From contig NZ_VFSU01000034.1 in NCBI RefSeq assembly GCF_006385875.1, positions 1-64,000 of the forward strand: a DNA stretch of 64,000 bases. Reading direction: 5' to 3'. The notes beneath the pieces were generated by a model. The model searched no databases. It saw nothing but the letters and a program-made list of their open reading frames with translations, and had not been told where the DNA came from. The position numbers and the translations under genes were made by a program. Shown piece by piece: positions 1-11,598 of this stretch (position 1 is its first letter; the number at the start of each line of letters is the position of its first letter). The DNA comes from Sandaracinobacter neustonicus. GTDB taxonomy: Bacteria > Pseudomonadota > Alphaproteobacteria > Sphingomonadales > Sphingomonadaceae.

Positions 1-71
1 TCGTAAAGGACTGCTGCGCGGGAAGCCCGGAACTGTGCGCGCCGCTGATCTCCGAACTCGCCTGCTGCTGA
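1..71 (+). CDS. arsR: ArsR-family arsenic repressor, C-terminal tail (partial)
   Basis: The third forward frame is open from the window edge to a TGA at 69-71 and reads the last 22 residues, ending CAPLISELACC. The tail contains adjacent cysteines, six residues and a further cysteine (CCAGSPELC), plus a terminal CC pair. ArsR repressors of this subgroup bind As(III) through C-terminal cysteines, and the gene lies 11 bases upstream of arsC. It is most probably the autoregulated repressor of the arsenic operon. The DNA-binding winged helix lies outside the window, so the family call rests on the tail and its position. Confidence 0.7.
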   Translation, partial: VKDCCAGSPELCAPLISELACC

Positions 72-82
72 GAGGCTCGCCA

Positions 83-514
83 ATGCCCACCGATATCATC
101 GTCTATCACAACCCGGAGTGCGGAACTTCGCGCAACACGCTCGGCCTCATCCGCAACGCGGGGCTTGAGCCGCATGTCATCGAGTATCTGAAGACGCCGC
201 CGTCGAGGGCGATGCTGGAAAGCCTGATCGAAAGGGCCGGCATTTCGCCCCGCGACCTGCTGCGGGAAAAGGGCACGCCCTATGCCAACCTCAATCTCGG
301 CAACCCAGAGTTGACCAACACGCAGTTGATCGACGCCATGATGGCGCACCCGGTCCTCATCAACCGCCCGCTCGTCGTGTCACCATTGGGCGTCAAGCTC
401 TGCCGTCCGTCCGAGGAAGTGCTCAGCTTGCTGCCAACGGCACAACAGGGCGCATTCACGAAGGAAGACGGCGAGCAGGTCATCGACGCCAGCGGCAAAC
501 GCGTGGGCGCCTGA
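83..514 (+). CDS. arsC: Glutaredoxin-coupled arsenate reductase ArsC
   Basis: This 143-residue protein of the ArsC/Spx thioredoxin-like fold reduces arsenate to arsenite in the cytoplasm with glutathione and glutaredoxin. The N-terminal active-site loop reads YHNPECGTSRNTL, with the catalytic cysteine at residue 13. The expected arginines follow in LLREKGTPY, INRPLVV and LCRPSEE, in the spacing of the plasmid R773 ArsC family. The start at 83 is preferred to an upstream in-frame codon at 35 because it gives the canonical short N-terminus and avoids overlap with the arsR tail. It is followed after 6 bases by acr3, so product and efflux pump are co-transcribed. Confidence 0.95.
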   Translation: MPTDIIVYHNPECGTSRNTLGLIRNAGLEPHVIEYLKTPPSRAMLESLIERAGISPRDLLREKGTPYANLNLGNPELTNTQLIDAMMAHPVLINRPLVVSPLGVKLCRPSEEVLSLLPTAQQGAFTKEDGEQVIDASGKRVGA

Positions 515-520
515 AGACCC

Positions 521-1600
521 ATGAACAGCCCCGCACGCCCACGCCTATCTTTCCTTGATCGATACCTGACGCTCTGGATATTCATCGCGATGGCAATCGG
601 AGTTGGCCTCGGCGCGCTGTTCCCGAGCCTGCCCGCCGCCATCGACAGCTACAGCATCGGCACCACCAACCTGCCTATCGCGGTCGGGCTCATCCTGATG
701 ATGTATCCGCCGCTCGCCCGAGTCCGCTATGAGGAACTGCCTCTGGTGTTCCGCGACAAGCGCATCCTTGCCATCTCGCTCGTGCAGAACTGGATTATCG
801 GTCCGGTGCTGATGTTCGCGCTCGCTGTCATCTTCCTGCGCGACCATCCCGAATACATGACCGGCCTGATCCTCATCGGCCTTGCCCGCTGCATCGCCAT
901 GGTGATCGTCTGGAACCAGCTGGCGAAGGGCGACAACCAGTATGTTGCGGCCTTGGTCGCGTTCAACTCGCTGTTCCAGATCCTGTTCTTCAGCGTCTAC
1001 GCCTGGTTCTTCCTCATGTTCCTTCCGCCGCTGCTGGGGCTGGGAGGCAGCGTAATCAACGTCAGCTTCTGGACCATCGCACAGGCCGTCCTCATCTATC
1101 TCGGCGTCCCGTTTGCGGCAGGCTTCCTCACCCGGCGCCTGCTGGTCGCACGCAAGGGCGCCGACTGGTATGAACAGCGCTTCCTGCCAAAGATCGGCCC
1201 CGTCACTCTGCTGGCGCTGCTGTTTACCATCCTGGCCATGTTCAGCCTGAAGGGGCAGGACATCCTGACGTTGCCGGGCGACGCGATCCGCATCGCCATC
1301 CCGCTCGTCATCTACTTCGTTGTCCAGTTCCTCATCAGCTTCTGGATGGGGAAGCTGATCGAGGCGGATTATCCCCGCACCACGGCGGTGGCGTTCACGG
1401 CAGCCGGCAACAATTTTGAGCTGGCAATTGCCGTTGCCATCGCGGCCTTTGGCCTTGCATCGCCGGTCGCCTTCGCAGCCGTGATTGGCCCGCTGGTCGA
1501 GGTGCCGGTGCTGATCCTGTTGGTGAATGTTGCCTTCTGGCTGGGCCGCCGATGGTTTCCTGCCACCACGCCCAACGTTGCCACCAAGGATAATACATGA
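521..1600 (+). CDS. acr3: ACR3-type arsenite efflux transporter
   Basis: A 359-residue polytopic inner-membrane protein with about ten hydrophobic segments, of the bile acid/arsenite/riboflavin transporter fold. It exports arsenite made by ArsC. The family hallmark residues are visible: a cysteine at 124 in the segment [12 protein letters not shown] and a glutamate at 301 in [12 protein letters not shown], matching the Cys and Glu that are essential in characterised Acr3 pumps. The gene begins 6 bases after arsC, and its stop overlaps the arsH start by 4 bases (ATGA), showing a tight operon. It is not the unrelated ArsB antiporter, which is longer and has a different topology. Confidence 0.95.
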
Positions 1601-2337
1601 GCCGTTTGCGCACTCTTCCAGACCCCGAACATTTTCCGGCGCTGAGGCCCGAGTATCTGCATCGTCTACCTGCGCTGGATCTCGGCGAACTCGACCCGCC
1701 GCCGCGCATCCTGCTGCTCTACGGCTCGTTGCGGGATCGTTCTTTCTCGCGTTTGGCGACGGAGGAGGCTGCAAGGCTGTTGCAGCTGTTTGGTTGCGAG
1801 ACGCGCATCTTCGACCCATCCGATCTCCCGCCGCCCGACCTGTTTCCTTACGACGACCATCCAGCAGTCCATGAACTACGCGAGCACTCGATCTGGTCAG
1901 AAGGGCAGGTTTGGTGCAGCCCTGAAAGGCACGGGCAGATCACCGGCATTATGAAGGCGCAGATCGACCATCTGCCACTGGCCATGAAGGGGGTTCGCCC
2001 AACGCAGGGCCGCACGCTCGCGGTGATGCAGGTCAACGCTGGCTCGCAGTCGTTCAACAGCGTAAACACCTTGCGCATCCTCGGCCGCTGGATGCGGATG
2101 ATCACCATCCCCAACCAGTCCAGCGTCGCCAAGGCCTACGATGAGTTCGACGACAATGGGCGCATGAAACCGTCGAGCTATTACGACCGGATTGTCGATG
2201 TCATGGAGGAGCTGGTGCGGTTCACCGTTTTGCTACGTCCCCACACCGATCAACTGGTCGACCGATACTCCGAGCGCAAGGATCGGAACGAGCCGGTGGA
2301 GACGCCGGTCGAGTTTGCGGGATTGGTTCGTTCGTAG
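1597..2337 (+). CDS. arsH: ArsH, NADPH-dependent FMN reductase / organoarsenical oxidase
   Basis: A 246-residue flavodoxin-like protein. After an N-terminal extension containing [17 protein letters not shown], the FMN phosphate-binding loop [14 protein letters not shown] appears, followed by the ArsH-typical [18 protein letters not shown] region. ArsH proteins reduce FMN with NADPH and, in studied cases, oxidise trivalent methyl- and aromatic arsenicals to less toxic forms. Translation is coupled to acr3 through the ATGA overlap. It closes the arsR-arsC-acr3-arsH operon, an order common in alphaproteobacteria. Confidence 0.95.
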
Positions 2338-4669: not shown

Positions 4670-5437
4670 CTACCGAAGTCCGGCAATCAGGCCGTCCATC
4701 GTCCAGCGGCCCAGCCATTGCCCGCAGCGGGCTGCGGCGCCTTCGTGCTCTACTGATTCCGCATGCCTACGGCAGATCTCGCCGAAAGCCACGCCGTTGG
4801 CCGCATCTGCAAGCGCCGCTCCCTCGTCATCGGGGAGTAGGCGGAAGCAGGGCTCAAGCCCCGCCCGCCAGACTGCAACCGTTCCGGGCACCGGTAGGCG
4901 TGCGTTGGGCAAAGGCGGTATGTCCGCGCCGATTGCCGTCCACATGGGCGTGACGTCGTAGAATAGCGGCCTCGTCACCAGTTCGGGCGCGATGACGAGG
5001 CGCATTTCCTCCCAATCCCGTTCGGAAAAACGGGCGGTGGCTTCCGTGAAGCTGCCTGCATCCAGCCGCGCCCCATCCGGTGCGGTGAACAGCCTCGCCA
5101 TCTGCCATTCCAGCCAGCACAATTCGGCAAGCTCGGGGTTGTCGGGAAACAGCTCGGCGAGCGTAGCGTCGAAGCCCGCGCCCAGCGCGTCCAGCGTCCA
5201 GCTGGTCGGTGGCTGGCGGATGCAATGGTGGCTGGCCGCTGCATCAAAGGCAGCGTCTCCGGCCCATGCGCGGCATTTGGGGAAGCTTTCCTGCAGGCAG
5301 CCAATCAGCCGCGCGCGATAGGCGTTGCGATAGACCTGAAGCCCCGCGTGCATCGACGGCGGCCAGCCGCCATCGTCAGGCTCTCCCGCGCTGGAGACGG
5401 TTCCCAGGAAGCCGCGCTGCATCTCGATCAGGCGCAT
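4670..5437 (-). CDS. bufC: BufC-like DUF2063 partner protein of the MNIO enzyme
   Basis: A 255-residue DUF2063 protein. The N-terminal half has the family pattern YRNAYRARLIGCLQESFPKC with an amphipathic helical domain, and the C-terminal half (from about residue 150, PLFYDVTPMWTAI) carries the second domain. DUF2063 proteins accompany DUF692 enzymes and are thought to bind the precursor peptide leader and deliver the core to the active site. Its start overlaps the end of bufB by 10 bases, so the pair is translationally coupled. The older label 'putative DNA-binding domain' for this family is not supported by its context here. Confidence 0.88.
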   Translation of the reverse strand: MRLIEMQRGFLGTVSSAGEPDDGGWPPSMHAGLQVYRNAYRARLIGCLQESFPKCRAWAGDAAFDAAASHHCIRQPPTSWTLDALGAGFDATLAELFPDNPELAELCWLEWQMARLFTAPDGARLDAGSFTEATARFSERDWEEMRLVIAPELVTRPLFYDVTPMWTAIGADIPPLPNARLPVPGTVAVWRAGLEPCFRLLPDDEGAALADAANGVAFGEICRRHAESVEHEGAAARCGQWLGRWTMDGLIAGLR

Positions 5438-6276
5438 CGGGCGAGCCCGCCTGCACCGGCTGCAATCGCGCGGGCGATAGCGAGTTCCGCCAGAATCTCC
5501 GGCAGCGGCGGGATATGATCGTCGCGCTCGATCATCACCGCCACCGGCCCCAGCCGGGGCAGGGTTTCGGCGAGCAGCGCCCAGACCGGATCGGCAACGG
5601 GCGCGTCGTGCGTATCGATCAGCATGTCGGAGCCCTGGCTATGGCCCGCCAGATGCACCTGCCGCACCCGGTCGGCCGGGATTCCTGCCAGCCAGGCGCG
5701 CGGATCGAGGCCATGGTTCGTGCAGCTGACGAACACATTGTTGATGTCCAGCAGCAGGCAACAGCCCGTCCGCGAACAGATTTCCGACAGGAACGCCCAT
5801 TCGGGCATCTCGTCCCCGGGAAACTGCACATAGCTGGAGGGGTTTTCGAACAGCATGGGCCGGCCAAGCGCATCCTGTGCCTGATGGATATTCTCGCAGA
5901 CGATCTCCAGCGCCTGCGCCGTCAGGGGCAGCGGCAGCAGGTCATGGCTGTTGCCGCCATCGACGCCGGTCCAGCACAGATGATCCGAAACCCAGAGCGG
6001 ATCCAGCCGGTCCGCCAGCGCTCGCAGCCGCGCAAGATAGTCGCGGTCGAGCCCGCTCGCCGAGCCGATGTTGAGCGAGACGCCGTGCATGGCGACCGGA
6101 AGCGTCCGGCGCACGGCATCCAGCACAACGAGCGGCCGTCCGCCCTCGACCATGAAATTCTCGGAGATGATCTCCACGAAATCCACATCGGGCATCGGCG
6201 CGTCGAGGAATGCCGCATAATGCTCCCGGCGCAGGCCCAGGCCGAAGCCGGTAAAGGGCGGGATGAGAGGCTGCAT
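5428..6276 (-). CDS. bufB: BufB-like MNIO (DUF692) multinuclear iron oxidative enzyme
   Basis: A 282-residue TIM-barrel protein of the DUF692/MNIO family. Candidate metal ligands occur in the expected order: His in AMHGVSLNIGS, His in VSDHLCWTG, Glu/Asn in ENPSSYV, Asp in LLDINNVFV, two His in QVHLAGHS, His in DTHDAPV and Glu in MIERDDHIPP. Family members use a di- or tri-iron centre and O2 to convert cysteines of ribosomal precursors into heterocycles; bufferin enzymes are reported to make 5-thiooxazoles that bind Cu(I). It follows the six-cysteine precursor gene after a strong hairpin and overlaps bufC. It is the only MNIO gene in the window. Confidence 0.92.
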   Translation of the reverse strand: MQPLIPPFTGFGLGLRREHYAAFLDAPMPDVDFVEIISENFMVEGGRPLVVLDAVRRTLPVAMHGVSLNIGSASGLDRDYLARLRALADRLDPLWVSDHLCWTGVDGGNSHDLLPLPLTAQALEIVCENIHQAQDALGRPMLFENPSSYVQFPGDEMPEWAFLSEICSRTGCCLLLDINNVFVSCTNHGLDPRAWLAGIPADRVRQVHLAGHSQGSDMLIDTHDAPVADPVWALLAETLPRLGPVAVMIERDDHIPPLPEILAELAIARAIAAGAGGLARCA

Positions 6277-6297
6277 GTCAGCTTCTTTCAGCGGTTT

Positions 6298-6333
6298 CGC
6301 CGCCCGGCCGCAGGGGGAAACGGCCGGGCGGCG
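6298..6333 (-). promoter_or_regulatory. 13-bp perfect stem-loop between the bufA2 and bufB reading frames
   Basis: CGCCGCCCGGCCG at 6298-6310 pairs perfectly with 6321-6333 across a 10-base loop. It lies in the 63-base gap between the precursor stop and the enzyme start on the minus strand. No T-run follows on that strand, so it is not a canonical intrinsic terminator. Such a structure could protect the 3' end of a short precursor mRNA or partly attenuate transcription into bufB-bufC. Confidence 0.6.
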
Positions 6334-6339
6334 CGCCTG

Positions 6340-6624
6340 TCAGCCGAGGTCGCCGATGGTGCCGCCAGCCTTCAGGCATTCGCCCGCCTGCATCGCCTTG
6401 AAGCCATGGCCCTTGCAGGCGTTCTGCCCCTTGCAGGCATGTTCCGCCGTCTTGCAGTCGGAATTGCCCTTGCAGCTGTGCAGGCCATAGCAATGCACGG
6501 TGTCGGTGGTGGTGAGCGCGCGGCCATTGCTGCCCTGCGGCGACGGGGCGGCCAGCGCCATGCCGGAAAGGGCGAACAGCGCAGCGGCCGATGCGATGGC
6601 GATACCTGTGGTGTGTTGGGTCAT
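6340..6624 (-). CDS. bufA2: Six-cysteine bufferin precursor (BufA2-like)
   Basis: A 94-residue secreted peptide. A signal peptide runs to about residue 25 (ALFALSGMALA). The mature part has six cysteines in a repetitive pattern: HCYG, SCKG, DCKT, ACKG, ACKG and a final GECLKAGG. The CKG repeats resemble BufA2-type precursors that accompany DUF692/DUF2063 enzymes, and the enzyme pair follows directly on the same strand. The start ATG at 6624 is chosen because it gives a proper signal peptide; a much longer open frame extends upstream without support. The predicted role is a periplasmic, post-translationally modified copper-buffering peptide. Confidence 0.85.
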   Translation of the reverse strand: MTQHTTGIAIASAAALFALSGMALAAPSPQGSNGRALTTTDTVHCYGLHSCKGNSDCKTAEHACKGQNACKGHGFKAMQAGECLKAGGTIGDLG

Positions 6625-6666
6625 GAAATTGCTCCCATCTGATTCAGCCGAAGTGGCTATCCGGGA

Positions 6667-6692
6667 TACGCACGAAGGGTGCGGCTGGTTAC
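6667..6692 (-). promoter_or_regulatory. Putative SigF-dependent promoter for bufA2-bufB-bufC
   Basis: On the minus strand, GTAACC (6687-6692) is followed by exactly 16 bases and CGTA (6667-6670). As I recall it, the Caulobacter SigF consensus is GTAACC-N16-CGAA, so the -35 is perfect and the -10 differs at one base. The -10 lies 43 bases from the bufA2 start. The plus-strand counterpart at 6726-6751 has the same spacing. Confidence 0.72.
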
Positions 6693-6725
6693 ACCGGGCA
6701 ATATCCGACAATCCGCGGACCGCCT

Positions 6726-6751
6726 GTAACTTCCGGGCAGGTGCCATCGAA
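6726..6751 (+). promoter_or_regulatory. Putative SigF-dependent promoter for bufA1-doxX-sigF-nrsF
   Basis: GTAACT (6726-6731), 16 bases, then CGAA (6748-6751): one mismatch in the -35 and a perfect -10 relative to the recalled SigF consensus. The -10 lies 47 bases upstream of the bufA1 start. As sigF is the third gene of this operon, the promoter would give positive autoregulation. The two divergent -35 elements are separated by 33 bases. Confidence 0.75.
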
Positions 6752-6798
6752 CAGGTCAGCAGAGGGCGGCGTTCGGCCGACCCGGAGGGAGACAGGAC

Positions 6799-7071
6799 AT
6801 GCGCAATATCACACGCACAGGCACCCTGCTGGCGGCGGCAGTCGCCGCCGGGATCGCAGGGGCCGCCCACGCCCAGAGCAAGCCGGCCATGGAAAAATGT
6901 TATGGCGTATCGAAGGCCGGGCAGAATGACTGCGCCGCCGGACCCGGAACCAGCTGCGCAGGCACCTCCACGACGGATTATCAGGGCAATGCCTGGAAGC
7001 TGGTTCCGAAAGGCAGCTGCCTGAAGATGCAGACGCCGAAGGGGCCCGGTTCCCTGACCGAGAAGAAGTGA
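6799..7071 (+). CDS. bufA1: Four-cysteine DUF2282 bufferin precursor (BufA1-like)
   Basis: A 90-residue DUF2282 protein. Its signal peptide ends near AGAAHAQS (residues 20-27). The mature peptide begins [15 protein letters not shown] and continues [20 protein letters not shown], giving the four conserved cysteines of the family. A purine-rich Shine-Dalgarno stretch (GGAGGGAGACAGG) lies just upstream. BufA1 peptides are reported to have their central cysteines converted by an MNIO enzyme to thiooxazoles and to sequester copper in the periplasm. No MNIO gene lies in this operon; the nearest is the divergent bufB. It is followed after 7 bases by the DoxX gene. Confidence 0.9.
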
Positions 7072-7078
7072 GGCGGCG

Positions 7079-7540
7079 GTGACGGCGCTCTGGAGACTGG
7101 CGGGCCGGGCGCGTGATGGCGTGAGCAGCGCCTGGCCCGAGGCGCTGGCGCTGCTGCTGGCGCGGCTGTCGCTTGCAGGCGTCTTCTGGCGATCCGGCCG
7201 CGCCAAGATCGCCGACGGCAGCCTGTTCACGATCAGCGACAGCACCTACTATCTGTTCGCCGAGGAATATGGGGGCGTTCCGCTGCCATCGGACCTCGCC
7301 GCCATCCTGGCGACGACGGCCGAGCATGTGTTGCCCGTGCTGCTGGTGCTGGGGCTTGCCACCCGGCTGTCGGCGCTGGGTCTGCTGGGGATGACCATGG
7401 TGATCCAGATCTTCGTCTACCCGCAGGCCTGGTGGCCGGTACATTCGCTGTGGGCGGCGCTGGCGCTGGTGCTGATCGTGCGCGGCGGCGGGCGGCTTTC
7501 GGTAGACCATCTGCTGGCGGCCCGGCTCAGCCCAGCATGA
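7079..7540 (+). CDS. DoxX-family inner-membrane protein
   Basis: A 153-residue DoxX-like protein with four hydrophobic helices, including [23 protein letters not shown] at the start and [13 protein letters not shown] near the end. DoxX proteins are regular members of DUF2282/DUF692 operons (called BufD in some work); their biochemical role is not settled, although a membrane redox or quinone-linked function is often suggested. The start is GTG at 7079. The stop overlaps the sigF start by 4 bases (ATGA), so sigma-factor translation is coupled to this gene. Confidence 0.88.
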
Positions 7541-8067
7541 GGGCCGACGGCGTCACGCTTGGCCGGCTGATGGCCGAAGCCCAGCGTGGCGACCGTCGCG
7601 CCTATGCACAGCTGCTGCAGGAATGCGCCGGCTGGCTGAAGCGCTTCTATGGCCGCCGCGTTCCGCCCTGCCAGATCGATGACCTGATCCAGGAGACGCT
7701 GATGTCGGTGCATGGCAAGCGCGCAACCTATGATCCTGCGCGCCCCTTCCTGCCATGGCTGGCCGCCATCGCCCGCTATCGCTGGGTCGATCAGCTGCGC
7801 CGCAGCTATCGCCGCAACGAGGTGGAAATCGACAGCGACATGGCGGCGCTTCAGGACGACGAGGCCGATGTGGTTGCCCGCATGAGCCTGGACGGGCTGC
7901 TGGCGCATCTGCCGCCGGCGCAGGCGCGCGCCATCGAGCTTGTGAAGATCGAGGGGCTGTCGATTGCGGAAGCCTCGCGCGCCACCGGGCAGAGCGAGCC
8001 GCTGGTAAAGGTGAACATACACAGGGGTTTGCGTAAGCTCTCCCTGATCGTCGAGCAGATGGACTGA
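7537..8067 (+). CDS. sigF: ECF sigma factor, SigF type
   Basis: A 176-residue ECF sigma factor. Region 2 is clear ([17 protein letters not shown], then the -10 recognition segment [18 protein letters not shown]) and region 4 carries the helix-turn-helix ([29 protein letters not shown]). The ATG at 7537 is used because it overlaps the DoxX stop and gives a normal ECF N-terminus. The neighbours match the Caulobacter SigF locus: DUF2282 and DoxX upstream and a DUF1109 anti-sigma factor downstream. In Caulobacter SigF responds to chromate and cadmium stress. Confidence 0.9.
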
Positions 8068-8069
8068 AG

Positions 8070-8711
8070 ATGGCCAAGGATAGCGACACACTGATTGCAG
8101 CGCTGGCGGCAGAACTGACCCCGGTGCGCCCGATGCGCCGCCGAACCGGGCTGGGCTGGCTTGCGGCCGCCGTGCTGGCAACGCTGGCGGTGACGGCCCT
8201 CTGGTTCGGCATCCGCGCCGACCTGATGGCGGGCGCCGCGCCGCCGCTGGTTCCGCTGGCAAGCGGGCTGTGGCTGCTGCTGGGGCTGGCGACGGCCTCC
8301 AGCGCCATTGCGCTGGGCACCCCCGAAGTCGGGCGGCGGTCCTCCGGCTGGCGGTGGACGCTGGCGATGGCGGCGCTGCTGCCGGCCGGCGCGCTTTTGA
8401 CGATCCTGCTCAATGCCCCCGATGGCCGGATTCCATCGGGAACGGTGGAGTGGGCTTGCGTCGGCGATGCGCTCGCCCTCAGCCTGGTGACGGCCGTCCC
8501 GCTGATCCTCTGGCTGAGGCGGGCGGCACCCGTCTCGCCCGAGAGGGCGGGGGCGCTGGTGGGTATCGCATCGGGCAGCATCGGCATCTTCGCCTTTTCG
8601 CTGCATTGCCCGATCGACGGGTTCGCACATCTTGGGCTGGGTCACTCAGTGCCCGTAGTGATCGCCGCCTTGGTCGGCCGGCTGCTGCTGCCACGCTTCT
8701 TGCGCTGGTAG
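8070..8711 (+). CDS. nrsF: NrsF-type DUF1109 membrane anti-sigma factor
   Basis: A 213-residue protein with six hydrophobic segments, a short cytoplasmic N-terminus (MAKDSDTLIAALAAELTPV) and the family N-terminal pattern. It has exactly two cysteines, Cys130 (VEWAC) and Cys180 (SLHCPIDGFAH). In Caulobacter NrsF, two conserved cysteines are needed for metal-triggered release of SigF, so their retention fits a metal-sensing anti-sigma factor. The gene starts 2 bases after sigF, as expected for a coupled sigma/anti-sigma pair. Confidence 0.9.
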   Translation: MAKDSDTLIAALAAELTPVRPMRRRTGLGWLAAAVLATLAVTALWFGIRADLMAGAAPPLVPLASGLWLLLGLATASSAIALGTPEVGRRSSGWRWTLAMAALLPAGALLTILLNAPDGRIPSGTVEWACVGDALALSLVTAVPLILWLRRAAPVSPERAGALVGIASGSIGIFAFSLHCPIDGFAHLGLGHSVPVVIAALVGRLLLPRFLRW

Positions 8712-10256: not shown

Positions 10257-10272
10257 GTCGGCGGATCATGCC
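10257..10272 (+). repeat. 16-bp direct repeat, right copy
   Basis: This is an exact copy of GTCGGCGGATCATGCC at 8808-8823. It includes the stop codon of the convergent doc gene (10266-10268), so the end of doc lies inside the repeat. Confidence 0.5.
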
Positions 10273-10655
10273 CGTCTTGCGGCGAACCAGGCCGCAACCT
10301 CGTCTTCGGTCAATTCTCCGGCCGCCAGTCGCAGGGCCATTTCGATGGCGTCTTCGGGCCGGAAGGCTAAAGGGACATCATTCAGCGCCAGAAAAAGGCG
10401 AGCCAGCACCCATGCCGTCCGCTTGTTGCCGTCCGTAAACGGATGGTTGCGCGCGATGCCGAAAGCATAGGCGGCCGCAAGCGCACACAGATCGGTCTCT
10501 CCGTAAGCCCATTGGTTGCGCGGGCGGGCGAGCGCCGATTCCAGGGCCGAAGGATCGCGCACACCAACTGGTCCACCGTGCTCAGCCAATTGTCGGTCGT
10601 GAACGGCAAGGGCAAGCTCAAGCTCGAGCCACACCGGCTCGACAGACGCTGTCAT
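10266..10655 (-). CDS. doc: Doc-type toxin of the Fic fold
   Basis: A 129-residue death-on-curing protein. The Fic-family motif HPFTDGNKRTAW begins at His71 and includes the phosphate-binding NKR; the N-terminus has the Doc-typical HGGPVGVRDPSALESALARP. Phage P1 Doc inactivates elongation factor Tu by phosphorylation, and the same activity is likely here but unproven. The start lies 2 bases after the antitoxin stop, the usual antitoxin-first order. The partner is AbrB-like rather than the Phd family paired with P1 Doc. Confidence 0.9.
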   Translation of the reverse strand: MTASVEPVWLELELALAVHDRQLAEHGGPVGVRDPSALESALARPRNQWAYGETDLCALAAAYAFGIARNHPFTDGNKRTAWVLARLFLALNDVPLAFRPEDAIEMALRLAAGELTEDEVAAWFAARRA

Positions 10656-10657
10656 GG

Positions 10658-10885
10658 CTATTTCGCCAGAACGCGCAGGATGTCCCGATCTTCGCGCATG
10701 ATCCGCTCGGCCACAGCCATCTTCTCCGCAAAATCCGGATTGGCGGCAGTGATCCGAATGCCCTCAGGCGTTTCGGACACGTACAGCGTATCGCCGACAC
10801 CTGCGCGCAGCTTTGCCAGCAGCTCCTTTGGCAGAACAACGCCGGCGGAATTGCCAATCTTGGTGATCTTCAGGCTTGCGTTCAT
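10658..10885 (-). CDS. AbrB/MazE-type antitoxin
   Basis: A 75-residue SpoVT/AbrB-fold protein. The swapped-hairpin DNA-binding domain fills the first 50 residues (LKITKIGNSAGVVLPKELL), followed by a short helical tail (FAEKMAVAERIMREDRDILRVL) that probably wraps the Doc toxin. Such antitoxins neutralise the toxin and repress their own promoter, which must lie in the 80 bases between this gene and the divergent recombinase. Confidence 0.9.
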   Translation of the reverse strand: MNASLKITKIGNSAGVVLPKELLAKLRAGVGDTLYVSETPEGIRITAANPDFAEKMAVAERIMREDRDILRVLAK

Positions 10886-10965
10886 ACTGCGGTTCTAACA
10901 CTTCACGCCTGCCATTCAAAGAGCGGTATTTTGCCATTGGCCATTCCGGCCATTGGAGAAGTGTC

Positions 10966-11598
10966 ATGGGACATTCTGATCTGGATCCCGCTGTGCGAGA
11001 GCGTCGTCCGTGGAACGCGGGAACGATTGTCGGCGCGAAACGACCACTGAAGCCCAGAGACGTCTGGGCGATCCGCTTCTACTTGGACGAGCATCGACGA
11101 CTACGGGACAAGGCGATGTTCGACCTCGCGATCGACAGCAAGCTGCGTGGTTGCGACATAGTCAAAATGAAGATCGGTGACATTGCCGTCGGAGGATCCA
11201 TCCGCAACCGCGCCACCATCGTCCAGCAAAAGACTGGCAAGCCAGTGCAGTTCGAACTGATGGCCGATGCACGCAAGAGCCTGCTGGCCTGGCTGGAGCG
11301 TCGAGGCGGTTACACCGACGACTTCGTGTTTCCGAGCCGTGTGGATTATCTCGGGCATCTGAGCACAAGACAGTATGCTCGTCTCGTTGACGAGTGGGTG
11401 ACGGCCGTTGGCCTTGATGTTCGACAGTACGGCACGCATTCGTTGCGGAGAACCAAGGCCTCGATGATCTACAAGGCGACCGGCAACCTGCGAGCTGTGC
11501 AAATCCTTTTGGGCCACAGCAGGATCGAGAACACCGTTCGCTATCTGGGTGTCGATGTCGACGACGCCCTTACGCTCTCCGAGCGAACTGAGATTTAA
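10966..11598 (+). CDS. Small tyrosine recombinase (phage integrase family)
   Basis: A 210-residue protein consisting almost entirely of the catalytic domain. The full active-site set is present: Arg61 (SKLRGCD), Lys89 (QQKTGKP), His158 and Arg161 (THSLRR), His184 (LGHS) and Tyr193 (NTVRYLG). The usual N-terminal core-binding SAM-like domain is reduced to about 45 residues, so it is much shorter than XerC/D or phage integrases (about 300 residues). Start ATG 10966 is used. It may act on local repeats or be an orphan from an integrated element; it supports the view that 1-15 kb is mobile. Confidence 0.88.
   Translation: MGHSDLDPAVRERRPWNAGTIVGAKRPLKPRDVWAIRFYLDEHRRLRDKAMFDLAIDSKLRGCDIVKMKIGDIAVGGSIRNRATIVQQKTGKPVQFELMADARKSLLAWLERRGGYTDDFVFPSRVDYLGHLSTRQYARLVDEWVTAVGLDVRQYGTHSLRRTKASMIYKATGNLRAVQILLGHSRIENTVRYLGVDVDDALTLSERTEI

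What the first reader, a model, noticed from the sequence alone, without database searches (positions are those of the whole stretch)
4670..8711. A mixed bufferin locus: two unrelated cysteine-rich precursors and one MNIO enzyme pair under local SigF/NrsF control
Seen: a six-cysteine CKG-repeat precursor with DUF692 and DUF2063 genes on one strand, and a four-cysteine DUF2282 precursor with DoxX, an ECF sigma factor and a DUF1109 anti-sigma factor on the other. Established: DUF2282 and CKG-type precursors are normally each found with their own DUF692/DUF2063 pair (the Buf1 and Buf2 systems of Caulobacter), and Caulobacter SigF/NrsF controls such genes. Inferred: here one BufB-BufC pair either serves both precursors, or the DUF2282 peptide is modified by an enzyme elsewhere or not at all. 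A dual-precursor, single-enzyme arrangement would be an unusual form of RiPP-based metal buffering.
Basis: partly seen in the sequence, partly recalled or inferred. Interest (0 to 1): 0.82.

Follow-up and report, generated by a model that had tools for sequence, protein, structure and literature searches.

The report
One enzyme pair, two copper peptides
This bacterium carries two related cysteine-rich periplasmic peptides of the copper-buffering kind but only one enzyme pair to mature them, and the same sharing arrangement recurs in many related genera, which makes it possible to test whether one enzyme serves both peptides.

Summary
In detail: BufA2, an MNIO (BufB) and a DUF2063 partner (BufC) on one strand; a DUF2282 (Buf1) precursor, DoxX, an ECF sigma factor and NrsF on the other. 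The 99.4%-complete genome holds one MNIO, DUF2063, DUF2282 and BufA2 gene each. 'Unrelated' and 'unusual' fail: the precursors are homologous (profile score 39, shuffles at most 18.5), and the mixed locus occurs in 32 of 199 family genomes, 21 genera. BufB and BufC belong to the Buf2 clade; both precursors have sigma-F-type promoter motifs.

Comparison favours one Buf2-type pair maturing both peptides. All four Cys are kept in 49 of 49 distinct mixed-locus DUF2282 peptides. A clade including Erythrobacter longus lacks BufA2 but keeps this enzyme and the DUF2282 operon. In G192 a Buf2-clade enzyme follows two DUF2282 genes. Two genomes of one genus with DUF2282 and no MNIO lost exactly the two central Cys; a weak homologue elsewhere (G552) keeps its Cys without an MNIO, a counterexample. 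Chemistry is untested, and a 2025 paper already raises one MNIO serving several precursors as an open question. New variant of a known kind.

The parts
4670..5437 (-). BufC: DUF2063 partner protein (PME type 1), Buf2-type
   Evidence: PF09836 61.7 bits; falls on the Buf2 side of the DUF2063 tree, branch SH-aLRT 99; only copy found in the genome
5428..6276 (-). BufB: MNIO (DUF692) enzyme, Buf2-clade; Asp directly after the conserved Asp of the ERD motif (ERDDHIPP)
   Evidence: NF050167 366 bits; Buf2 clade, branch SH-aLRT 100; only copy found in the genome; sequence similar to solved DUF692/MbnB chains, best 3bww
6340..6624 (-). BufA2 precursor: Sec-type signal peptide (by eye), six Cys, three CKG
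   Evidence: NF050166 106.7 bits, cut-off 60
6667..6692 (-). sigma-F-type promoter motif GTAACC-N16-CGTA, beginning 68 bp before the BufA2 start
   Evidence: one mismatch to the published motif; comparable sites before BufA2 in 45 of 52 mixed loci (42 of 49 distinct), 141 of 5200 control stretches
6726..6751 (+). sigma-F-type promoter motif GTAACT-N16-CGAA, beginning 73 bp before the DUF2282 start
   Evidence: one mismatch to the published motif; comparable sites before DUF2282 in 35 of 52 mixed loci (34 of 49 distinct) and 9 of 9 DIV1 loci
6799..7071 (+). BufA1: DUF2282 (Buf1) precursor, four Cys
   Evidence: PF10048 92.2 bits; all four Cys kept in 49 of 49 distinct mixed-locus sequences, window included
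7079..7540 (+). DoxX-family membrane protein (GTG start)
   Evidence: PF07681 62.3 bits
7537..8067 (+). ECF sigma factor, SigF-like by context
   Evidence: PF04542/PF08281; 4-bp overlap with doxX
8070..8711 (+). NrsF-type (DUF1109) anti-sigma factor with Cys130 and Cys180
   Evidence: PF06532 129 bits; the two Cys are kept in 97 of 97 aligned rows with profile score over 160 (91 distinct rows)

Best explanation
This is a two-precursor bufferin locus in which one Buf2-type BufB-BufC complex most likely matures both BufA2 and the DUF2282 (Buf1) peptide. Proposed mechanism: metal or thiol stress is sensed through the paired cysteines of NrsF (Cys130/Cys180); the ECF sigma factor is released and fires two back-to-back promoters; BufA2-BufB-BufC and BufA1-DoxX-Sigma-NrsF are made together. 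BufB-BufC acts in the cytoplasm on core cysteines common to both precursors and turns them into thiooxazoles, and Sec exports both peptides to the periplasm, where they bind copper. The likely origin is loss of the Buf1 system's own enzyme pair from a two-system neighbourhood (DUF2282-[BufB1-BufC1]-DoxX-Sigma-NrsF beside BufA2-BufB2-BufC2). Shown here: gene content, single enzyme pair, clade of BufB and BufC, homology of the precursors, paired promoter motifs, conservation across genera. Inferred: that the DUF2282 peptide is a substrate, the chemistry, the signal, export, copper binding and the order of evolutionary events.
For: (1) One MNIO, one DUF2063, one DUF2282 and one BufA2 found in the own genome. 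(2) BufB lies in the Buf2 enzyme clade, separated from Buf1-operon enzymes by a branch with SH-aLRT 100 in a tree of 82 of 166 distinct sequences; all 48 distinct mixed-locus enzymes fall in that clade in the FastTree of 166. BufC likewise, SH-aLRT 99, 80 rows. The residue after the ERD Asp is Asp in 45 of 48 mixed-locus enzymes against 1 of 40 Buf1-operon enzymes outside the clade; PMC13097082 names Asp here as typical of Cys-Lys (Buf2) MNIOs (section 14). (3) Among 199 family genomes, 36 have a Buf2-clade MNIO and no Buf1-clade MNIO; 33 of these have DUF2282 (G018, whose split MNIO was too short for the tree, is counted by its neighbours), against 2 of 130 genomes without an MNIO match. (4) Four Cys kept in 49 of 49 mixed-locus and 9 of 9 DIV1 DUF2282 sequences. 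(5) DIV1 clade (9 loci; one clade SH-aLRT 100, inside a mixed+DIV1 group SH-aLRT 97): no BufA2 beside the enzyme, but MNIO-DUF2063 and DUF2282-DoxX-Sigma-NrsF present; no ORF of 25 aa or more in the gap is shared by more than 4 of 9 loci; the strict motif faces DUF2282 in 9 of 9, and motif-like sites face the MNIO. The 3 family members of this clade have one MNIO, two DUF2282 and no BufA2 match in the genome. (6) G192: a Buf2-clade MNIO with two DUF2282 genes directly before it on the same strand, no BufA2 over its cut-off in the genome, Asn at the selectivity site. (7) In G051 and G128, DUF2282 present and MNIO absent, the two central Cys are lost and the outer two kept. The central Cys are the modified ones in Buf1 (PMC12452194 figure legend). 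(8) DUF2282 and BufA2 cores align (hhalign probability 93, score 39; 100 column shuffles max 18.5; 100 Cys-preserving shuffles max 17.7).
Against: No biochemical or mass data. G051 and G128 are one genus, so one event. G552, outside the family, has a weak DUF2282 homologue (28 bits) that keeps CYG and the central-type Cys (five Cys in the core) with no MNIO match, so Cys can persist without an enzyme. G366 also has DUF2282 and no MNIO match, but its gene starts at base 22 of a contig. Neighbouring genes are inherited together, so co-occurrence counts are not independent. Three genomes with a Buf2-clade but no Buf1-clade MNIO lack DUF2282 (G025, G135, G174). In PMC12452194 areas of the MNIO network correspond to specific precursor families, which argues for specificity. 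Seven of 9 DIV1 enzymes still have the Buf2-type Asp, so no retuning towards DUF2282 is visible there. Before the DIV1 MNIO genes only 2 of 9 loci have the strict motif; in the other 7 the best site departs from it at the sixth base, and 3 of the 9 best sites do not exceed the highest of 200 shuffles. The 34-contig assembly could hide a second enzyme.
Confidence: 0.7

Rival explanations
1. Only BufA2 is modified. The DUF2282 peptide works unmodified, for example as a periplasmic thiol or metal carrier or as an input to NrsF or DoxX, using its four plain cysteines.
For: It sits in the DoxX-Sigma-NrsF operon, away from the enzyme. PMC12452194 names this possibility for precursors without their own enzyme. 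G552 keeps its Cys in a weak homologue without an MNIO match.
Against: In the DIV1 loci and in G192 the Buf2-type enzyme has no BufA2 beside it, only DUF2282. G051/G128 lost the two central Cys where no MNIO is present. DUF2282 occurs in 2 of 130 MNIO-less family genomes.
Confidence: 0.2
2. The DUF2282 gene is a decaying remnant of a Buf1 system that lost its enzymes, with no present role.
For: Gene order equals the canonical Buf1 operon with sigma and NrsF minus its MNIO-DUF2063 pair (compare L222, L225 with the window).
Against: Four Cys and the core are conserved in 49 of 49 distinct sequences, the layout recurs in 21 genera, and promoter motifs are kept.
Confidence: 0.03
3. A second, undetected enzyme elsewhere (assembly gap, or a maturase unlike PF05114) modifies the DUF2282 peptide.
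For: The genome is a 34-contig draft, 99.4% complete.
Against: The state repeats: 30 family genomes, the window's included, have DUF2282 and only Buf2-clade MNIO genes. All would need the same gap.
Confidence: 0.07

Closest known systems
Buf2 (BufA2-BufB2-BufC2) bufferin system, Caulobacter CC2907-CC2905
   Same: BufA2-type precursor, Buf2-clade MNIO and DUF2063 in the same order, sigma-F-type promoter (PMC3511200 passages; that CC2907 is the Buf2 precursor is recalled, as that paper labels it DUF2282).
   Different: Here a DUF2282 operon without its own enzymes is divergent from it, and the sigma/NrsF genes are local. PMC12452194 states that sigma/NrsF genes are found in Buf1 but not Buf2 BGCs.
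Buf1 (DUF2282-MNIO-DUF2063-DoxX) bufferin system, Caulobacter CC3254-CC3257 next to sigF-nrsF (CC3253, CC3252)
   Same: DUF2282 precursor, DoxX, ECF sigma, NrsF with two Cys, sigma-F-type promoter.
   Different: The MNIO-DUF2063 pair is missing from this operon; the only pair found in the genome is of the Buf2 clade.
Genomes with several bufferin-like precursors but one MNIO-PME1 pair (PMC12452194 Discussion, passage seen)
   Same: Same situation: more precursors than enzyme pairs, with shared modification suggested.
   Different: The passages and sections I saw describe no fixed Buf1+Buf2 divergent locus, no clade of its enzyme and no BufA2-less lineage. Figures and supplements of that paper were not available.
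Captophorins (PMC13097082)
   Same: MNIO plus PME1 acting on Cys of precursors; DUF2282 and Cys-Lys precursors are both among its groups (passages).
   Different: Cross-class use of one enzyme was not described in the passages and the one section seen.

Membership tests
Buf2 bufferin system | BufA2-type precursor with six Cys and CKG motifs | tested here: met
   NF050166 106.7 bits, cut-off 60; six Cys by reading
Buf2 bufferin system | MNIO of the Buf2 clade directly downstream, then DUF2063 | tested here: met
Buf2 bufferin system | Cys-derived modification and copper binding | not testable with these tools
   needs expression and mass spectrometry; [quoted passage not shown]
Buf1 bufferin system | DUF2282 precursor with four conserved Cys | tested here: met
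   PF10048 92.2 bits; Cys
Buf1 bufferin system | own Buf1-clade MNIO and DUF2063 downstream of the precursor (bufABC) | tested here: not met
   no MNIO or DUF2063 in that operon and none found elsewhere in the genome; so this half is not filed as a complete Buf1 system
Sigma-F/NrsF regulon | promoters of the form GTAACC-N16-CGAA before the target operons | tested here: met
   both sites, each with one mismatch; motif from PMC3511200 passages
Sigma-F/NrsF regulon | NrsF with two conserved Cys | tested here: met
   Cys130 and Cys180, kept in 97 of 97 aligned rows; Caulobacter C131/C181 in PMC3511200
Sigma-F/NrsF regulon | orthology of this sigma factor to Caulobacter SigF | not tested
   no tree of sigma factors was built; the NCBIfam AntiSigF_NrsF equivalog model for the partner is below its cut-off (48 of 300)
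Sigma-F/NrsF regulon | induction by metal stress | not testable with these tools
   needs expression data

The most novel reading that the evidence does not exclude
A Buf2-type MNIO-DUF2063 complex is the shared maturase of two bufferin families across Sphingomonadaceae and perhaps some gamma- and betaproteobacteria, and in one lineage that includes Erythrobacter it has been wholly taken over by DUF2282 after loss of BufA2. MNIO substrate range would then be set by the shared bufferin core rather than by precursor family.
Probability: 0.6. Interest if true: 0.65.

Novelty: new variant of a known kind. Interest (0 to 1): 0.55.

Why it matters
How MNIO-partner complexes choose substrates is open, and PMC12452194 leaves undecided whether precursors without their own enzyme are modified. 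This locus type gives a clean test with natural controls: mixed loci (one enzyme, two precursors), BufA2-less loci (same enzyme lineage, DUF2282 only), double-system loci (both enzyme pairs), and a genus with DUF2282 but no enzyme and no central Cys. If one enzyme serves both families, predicting products from gene neighbourhood alone will miss real substrates.

Tried and rejected
Rejected: 'unrelated precursors'. Rejected as far as the assembly allows: 'second enzyme pair elsewhere'. Tested and weak: a Lys after the first central Cys of DUF2282, which would mimic the Cys-Lys motif, is commoner in mixed loci (16 of 49) than in MNIO-operon peptides (7 of 48) and absent in DIV1 (0 of 9); relatedness was not corrected for, so it is not used. 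Inconclusive: further sigma-F targets in the own genome. The pattern GTAACY-N16-CGWA has 9 matches against 12 for the reversed control, so it is not enriched genome-wide; two of the 9 are in this locus, and the open frames behind the other seven were not identified. Class-level extension (387 genomes): DUF2282 and MNIO co-occur in 140, DUF2282 alone in 2 (G366, G552), MNIO alone in 15. G552 is a counterexample to the Cys-loss control; G366's gene lies at the edge of its contig and cannot be judged. Divergent loci with BufA2-like peptides also appear in other families: L287/G207 (profile score 32, under my threshold of 60) and L289/G500 (peptide seen in an ORF list).

Data handling. The MNIO tree used 173 of 179 detected hits (score at least 250 and length at least 220), 166 distinct; the second tree used 82 of these, chosen by taking every second or third row of the large classes. 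The 52 mixed loci hold some loci fetched twice from the named and unnamed collections (L004/L185, L005/L192, L021/L202); without repeats the counts are 42 of 49 before BufA2 and 34 of 49 before DUF2282. The motif used there is looser than the published one (GTAAC[CT], spacing 15-17, CG[AT][AT]). The 32-genome count uses the unnamed family set only; one of the 32, G167, is probably a double system cut by contig ends (L206, L248). G018's MNIO is split between two contigs. For the profile comparison 124 of 125 DUF2282 and 93 of 101 BufA2 rows held the anchor used for trimming; the rest were dropped. The 97 NrsF rows hold 91 distinct sequences, with the window in twice. The five gamma- and betaproteobacterial mixed loci were not checked for further MNIO genes in their genomes.

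Not run: structure prediction and complex modelling (only single chains are offered).
Full report
WHAT IS THERE. Seven genes in two divergent blocks. Minus strand, in order of transcription: BufA2 (6340-6624), BufB/MNIO (5428-6276), BufC/DUF2063 (4670-5437; its start overlaps the end of BufB). Plus strand: DUF2282 precursor (6799-7071), DoxX (7079-7540), ECF sigma (7537-8067), NrsF (8070-8711). Curated models assign BufA2 (NF050166, 106.7 bits, cut-off 60), BufB (NF050167, 366, cut-off 310), DUF2282 (PF10048, 92.2, cut-off 22.4), DoxX, DUF2063 and NrsF. In the genome (34 contigs, 99.4% complete) one MNIO, one DUF2282, one DUF2063 and one BufA2 were found.

REGULATION. Caulobacter sigma-F uses GTAACC-N16-CGAA and controls both the CC2907-05 and the CC3254-57 operons; substitution of NrsF C131 and C181 raises the regulon (PMC3511200, passages seen). 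In the window the motif occurs twice with one mismatch, back to back with 33 bases between, one before each precursor (6667-6692 minus, 6726-6751 plus). At up to two mismatches the 64-kb window has 38 matches against 27.5 expected, so the weaker matches mean nothing; these two are the only ones with one mismatch. With a slightly looser motif, a site lies within 320 bp before BufA2 in 45 of 52 mixed loci and before DUF2282 in 35 of 52 (42 and 34 of 49 distinct); random 320-base stretches of the same loci have one in 141 of 5200. NrsF Cys130 and Cys180 are kept in 97 of 97 aligned rows.

THE ARRANGEMENT IS COMMON. In 199 family genomes, MNIO occurs in 69, DUF2282 in 65 and BufA2 over its cut-off in 41. 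Fetching the MNIO regions and scanning them with profiles built from the window proteins gave 32 genomes in 21 genera with DUF2282 beside BufA2-MNIO and without an MNIO of its own; one of them (G167) is probably a double system cut by contig ends. Of 46 family loci whose MNIO was placed in the Buf2 clade, 32 are mixed. Nineteen genomes have exactly the window's layout. Nine loci plus one (G076) have DoxX-DUF2282 divergent from Sigma-NrsF-BufA2-MNIO-DUF2063, which puts sigma and NrsF inside a Buf2 operon; [quoted passage not shown] Mixed same-strand loci appear in Pseudomonas fuscovaginae, Duganella, Dyella, Massilia and a Burkholderiales MAG (L014, L024, L029, L035, L011). Loci with both enzyme pairs exist too (G020/L215, Asticcacaulis L030/L031, and Luteibacter L025, L032, L038, L042). 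Two same-genus genomes in the sample (G101, G163) lack MNIO, DUF2282 and BufA2 altogether, so the locus is not fixed in the window's own genus.

WHICH ENZYME. In a tree of 82 MNIOs, Buf1-operon enzymes and Buf2-type enzymes are split by a branch with SH-aLRT 100; the window and the other mixed-locus enzymes in it lie on the Buf2 side. In the FastTree of 166 distinct sequences all 48 distinct mixed-locus enzymes are in the Buf2 clade. The DUF2063 proteins split the same way (80 rows, SH-aLRT 99). PMC13097082 (section 14) reports Asp next to the catalytic Asp as typical of Cys-Lys (Buf2) MNIOs. Mixed-locus enzymes have Asp in 45 of 48 distinct sequences, Buf1-operon enzymes outside the clade in 1 of 40. 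So the only enzyme found in this genome is of the Buf2 type, and the DUF2282 peptide has no enzyme of its own kind.

IS DUF2282 A SUBSTRATE? Five comparative lines say probably yes. (a) All four Cys are present in 49 of 49 distinct mixed-locus sequences and 9 of 9 DIV1 sequences. (b) In the DIV1 clade (Erythrobacter longus, five loci from uncultured Erythrobacter, G041, G121, G180), which sits inside a group of mixed loci, BufA2 is absent from the locus while MNIO-DUF2063 and DUF2282-DoxX-Sigma-NrsF are present. The 388-546-base intervals hold no ORF shared by more than 4 of 9 loci. The strict motif faces DUF2282 in 9 of 9 and the MNIO in 2 of 9; scored with a weight matrix, the best site facing the MNIO, 122-263 bases before its match start, is above the 95% shuffle level in 9 of 9 and above the highest of 200 shuffles in 6 of 9. 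(c) In G192 a Buf2-clade MNIO is preceded on its strand by two DUF2282 genes, with no BufA2 over its cut-off in the genome, and has Asn at the selectivity site. (d) Family genomes with a Buf2-clade and no Buf1-clade MNIO have DUF2282 in 33 of 36; MNIO-less genomes in 2 of 130. (e) Those two (G051, G128, one genus) have lost exactly the two central Cys and kept the outer pair. In Buf1 the central Cys carry the modification and the outer ones form a disulphide (PMC12452194 figure legend). Against: G552, outside the family, has a weak DUF2282 homologue that keeps its Cys, with no MNIO match; three genomes with only the Buf2-type enzyme lack DUF2282; and linked genes are not independent data.

WHY SHARING IS PLAUSIBLE. 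DUF2282 and BufA2 are not unrelated. Alignments of their mature cores match with probability 93 and score 39; 100 column shuffles reach at most 18.5, and 100 shuffles that keep the Cys columns at most 17.7. The alignment pairs CYG with CYG, NDC with SDC, SCAG with ACKG and the last Cys with the last Cys, so by this alignment BufA2 looks like the DUF2282 core with two further CKG cysteines. PMC12452194 notes that structural models of the two are related and suggests that their enzymes are isofunctional, and PMC13097082 found most active-site variants of a related enzyme, FonB, still active.

PRIOR ART. PMC12452194 already reports genomes with several bufferin-like precursors and a single MNIO-PME1 pair, and says that one complex may modify several precursors or that some are unmodified (Discussion passage). 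So the idea is not new. I did not find the conserved Buf1+Buf2 divergent locus, its enzyme clade or the BufA2-less lineage in the abstract, sections and passages I saw of PMC12452194 and PMC13097082 or in the titles and abstract starts listed by searches for 'bufferins', 'DUF692/DUF2063/DUF2282/MNIO', 'captophorin' and 'DUF2282/Sphingo/DUF692/single MNIO/bufferins'. Figures and supplements were not available; the original bufferin paper did not appear in the listing and I did not try to fetch it by id.

VERDICT. Observation confirmed. Interpretation partly right: a dual-precursor, single-enzyme locus, but with homologous precursors and a widespread layout. Best reading: one Buf2-type BufB-BufC pair matures both peptides (0.7). 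New variant of a known kind; interest 0.55 because it makes an open specificity question testable with natural controls.

Noticed in passing
L172, L189, L195, L198, L200, L213 (+) and L171, L173, L203, L214 (-): Sigma and NrsF genes lie just upstream of BufA2-MNIO on the same strand, against the published statement that they are absent from Buf2 gene clusters.
   Followed up: partly
L006, L007, L009, L012, L016, L018, L027: An NrsF-type gene followed by a Buf2-clade MNIO-DUF2063 pair with no BufA2 or DUF2282 match in between; the substrate must be elsewhere.
   Followed up: partly
L255 (G051) and L256 (G128): DUF2282-family genes lacking exactly the two central cysteines, in genomes without an MNIO match.
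   Followed up: yes
L285 (G552): Weak DUF2282 homologue that keeps its Cys in a 1.1-Mb genome with no MNIO match.
   Followed up: partly
window 35-2337: Arsenic-type operon (ArsC family, SBF-family transporter, FMN reductase) upstream of the locus on the same contig.
   Followed up: no
window 10266-11598: Fic/Doc and MazE-type pair on the minus strand, overlapping the start of a phage-type integrase gene; a possible mobile-element boundary.
   Followed up: no
L260-L264 (G041, G121, G180, G120, G037): Second, stand-alone DUF2282 genes with all four Cys, with no MNIO within the fetched stretch, in genomes with one Buf2-clade MNIO (G120 also has another, distant MNIO).
   Followed up: partly
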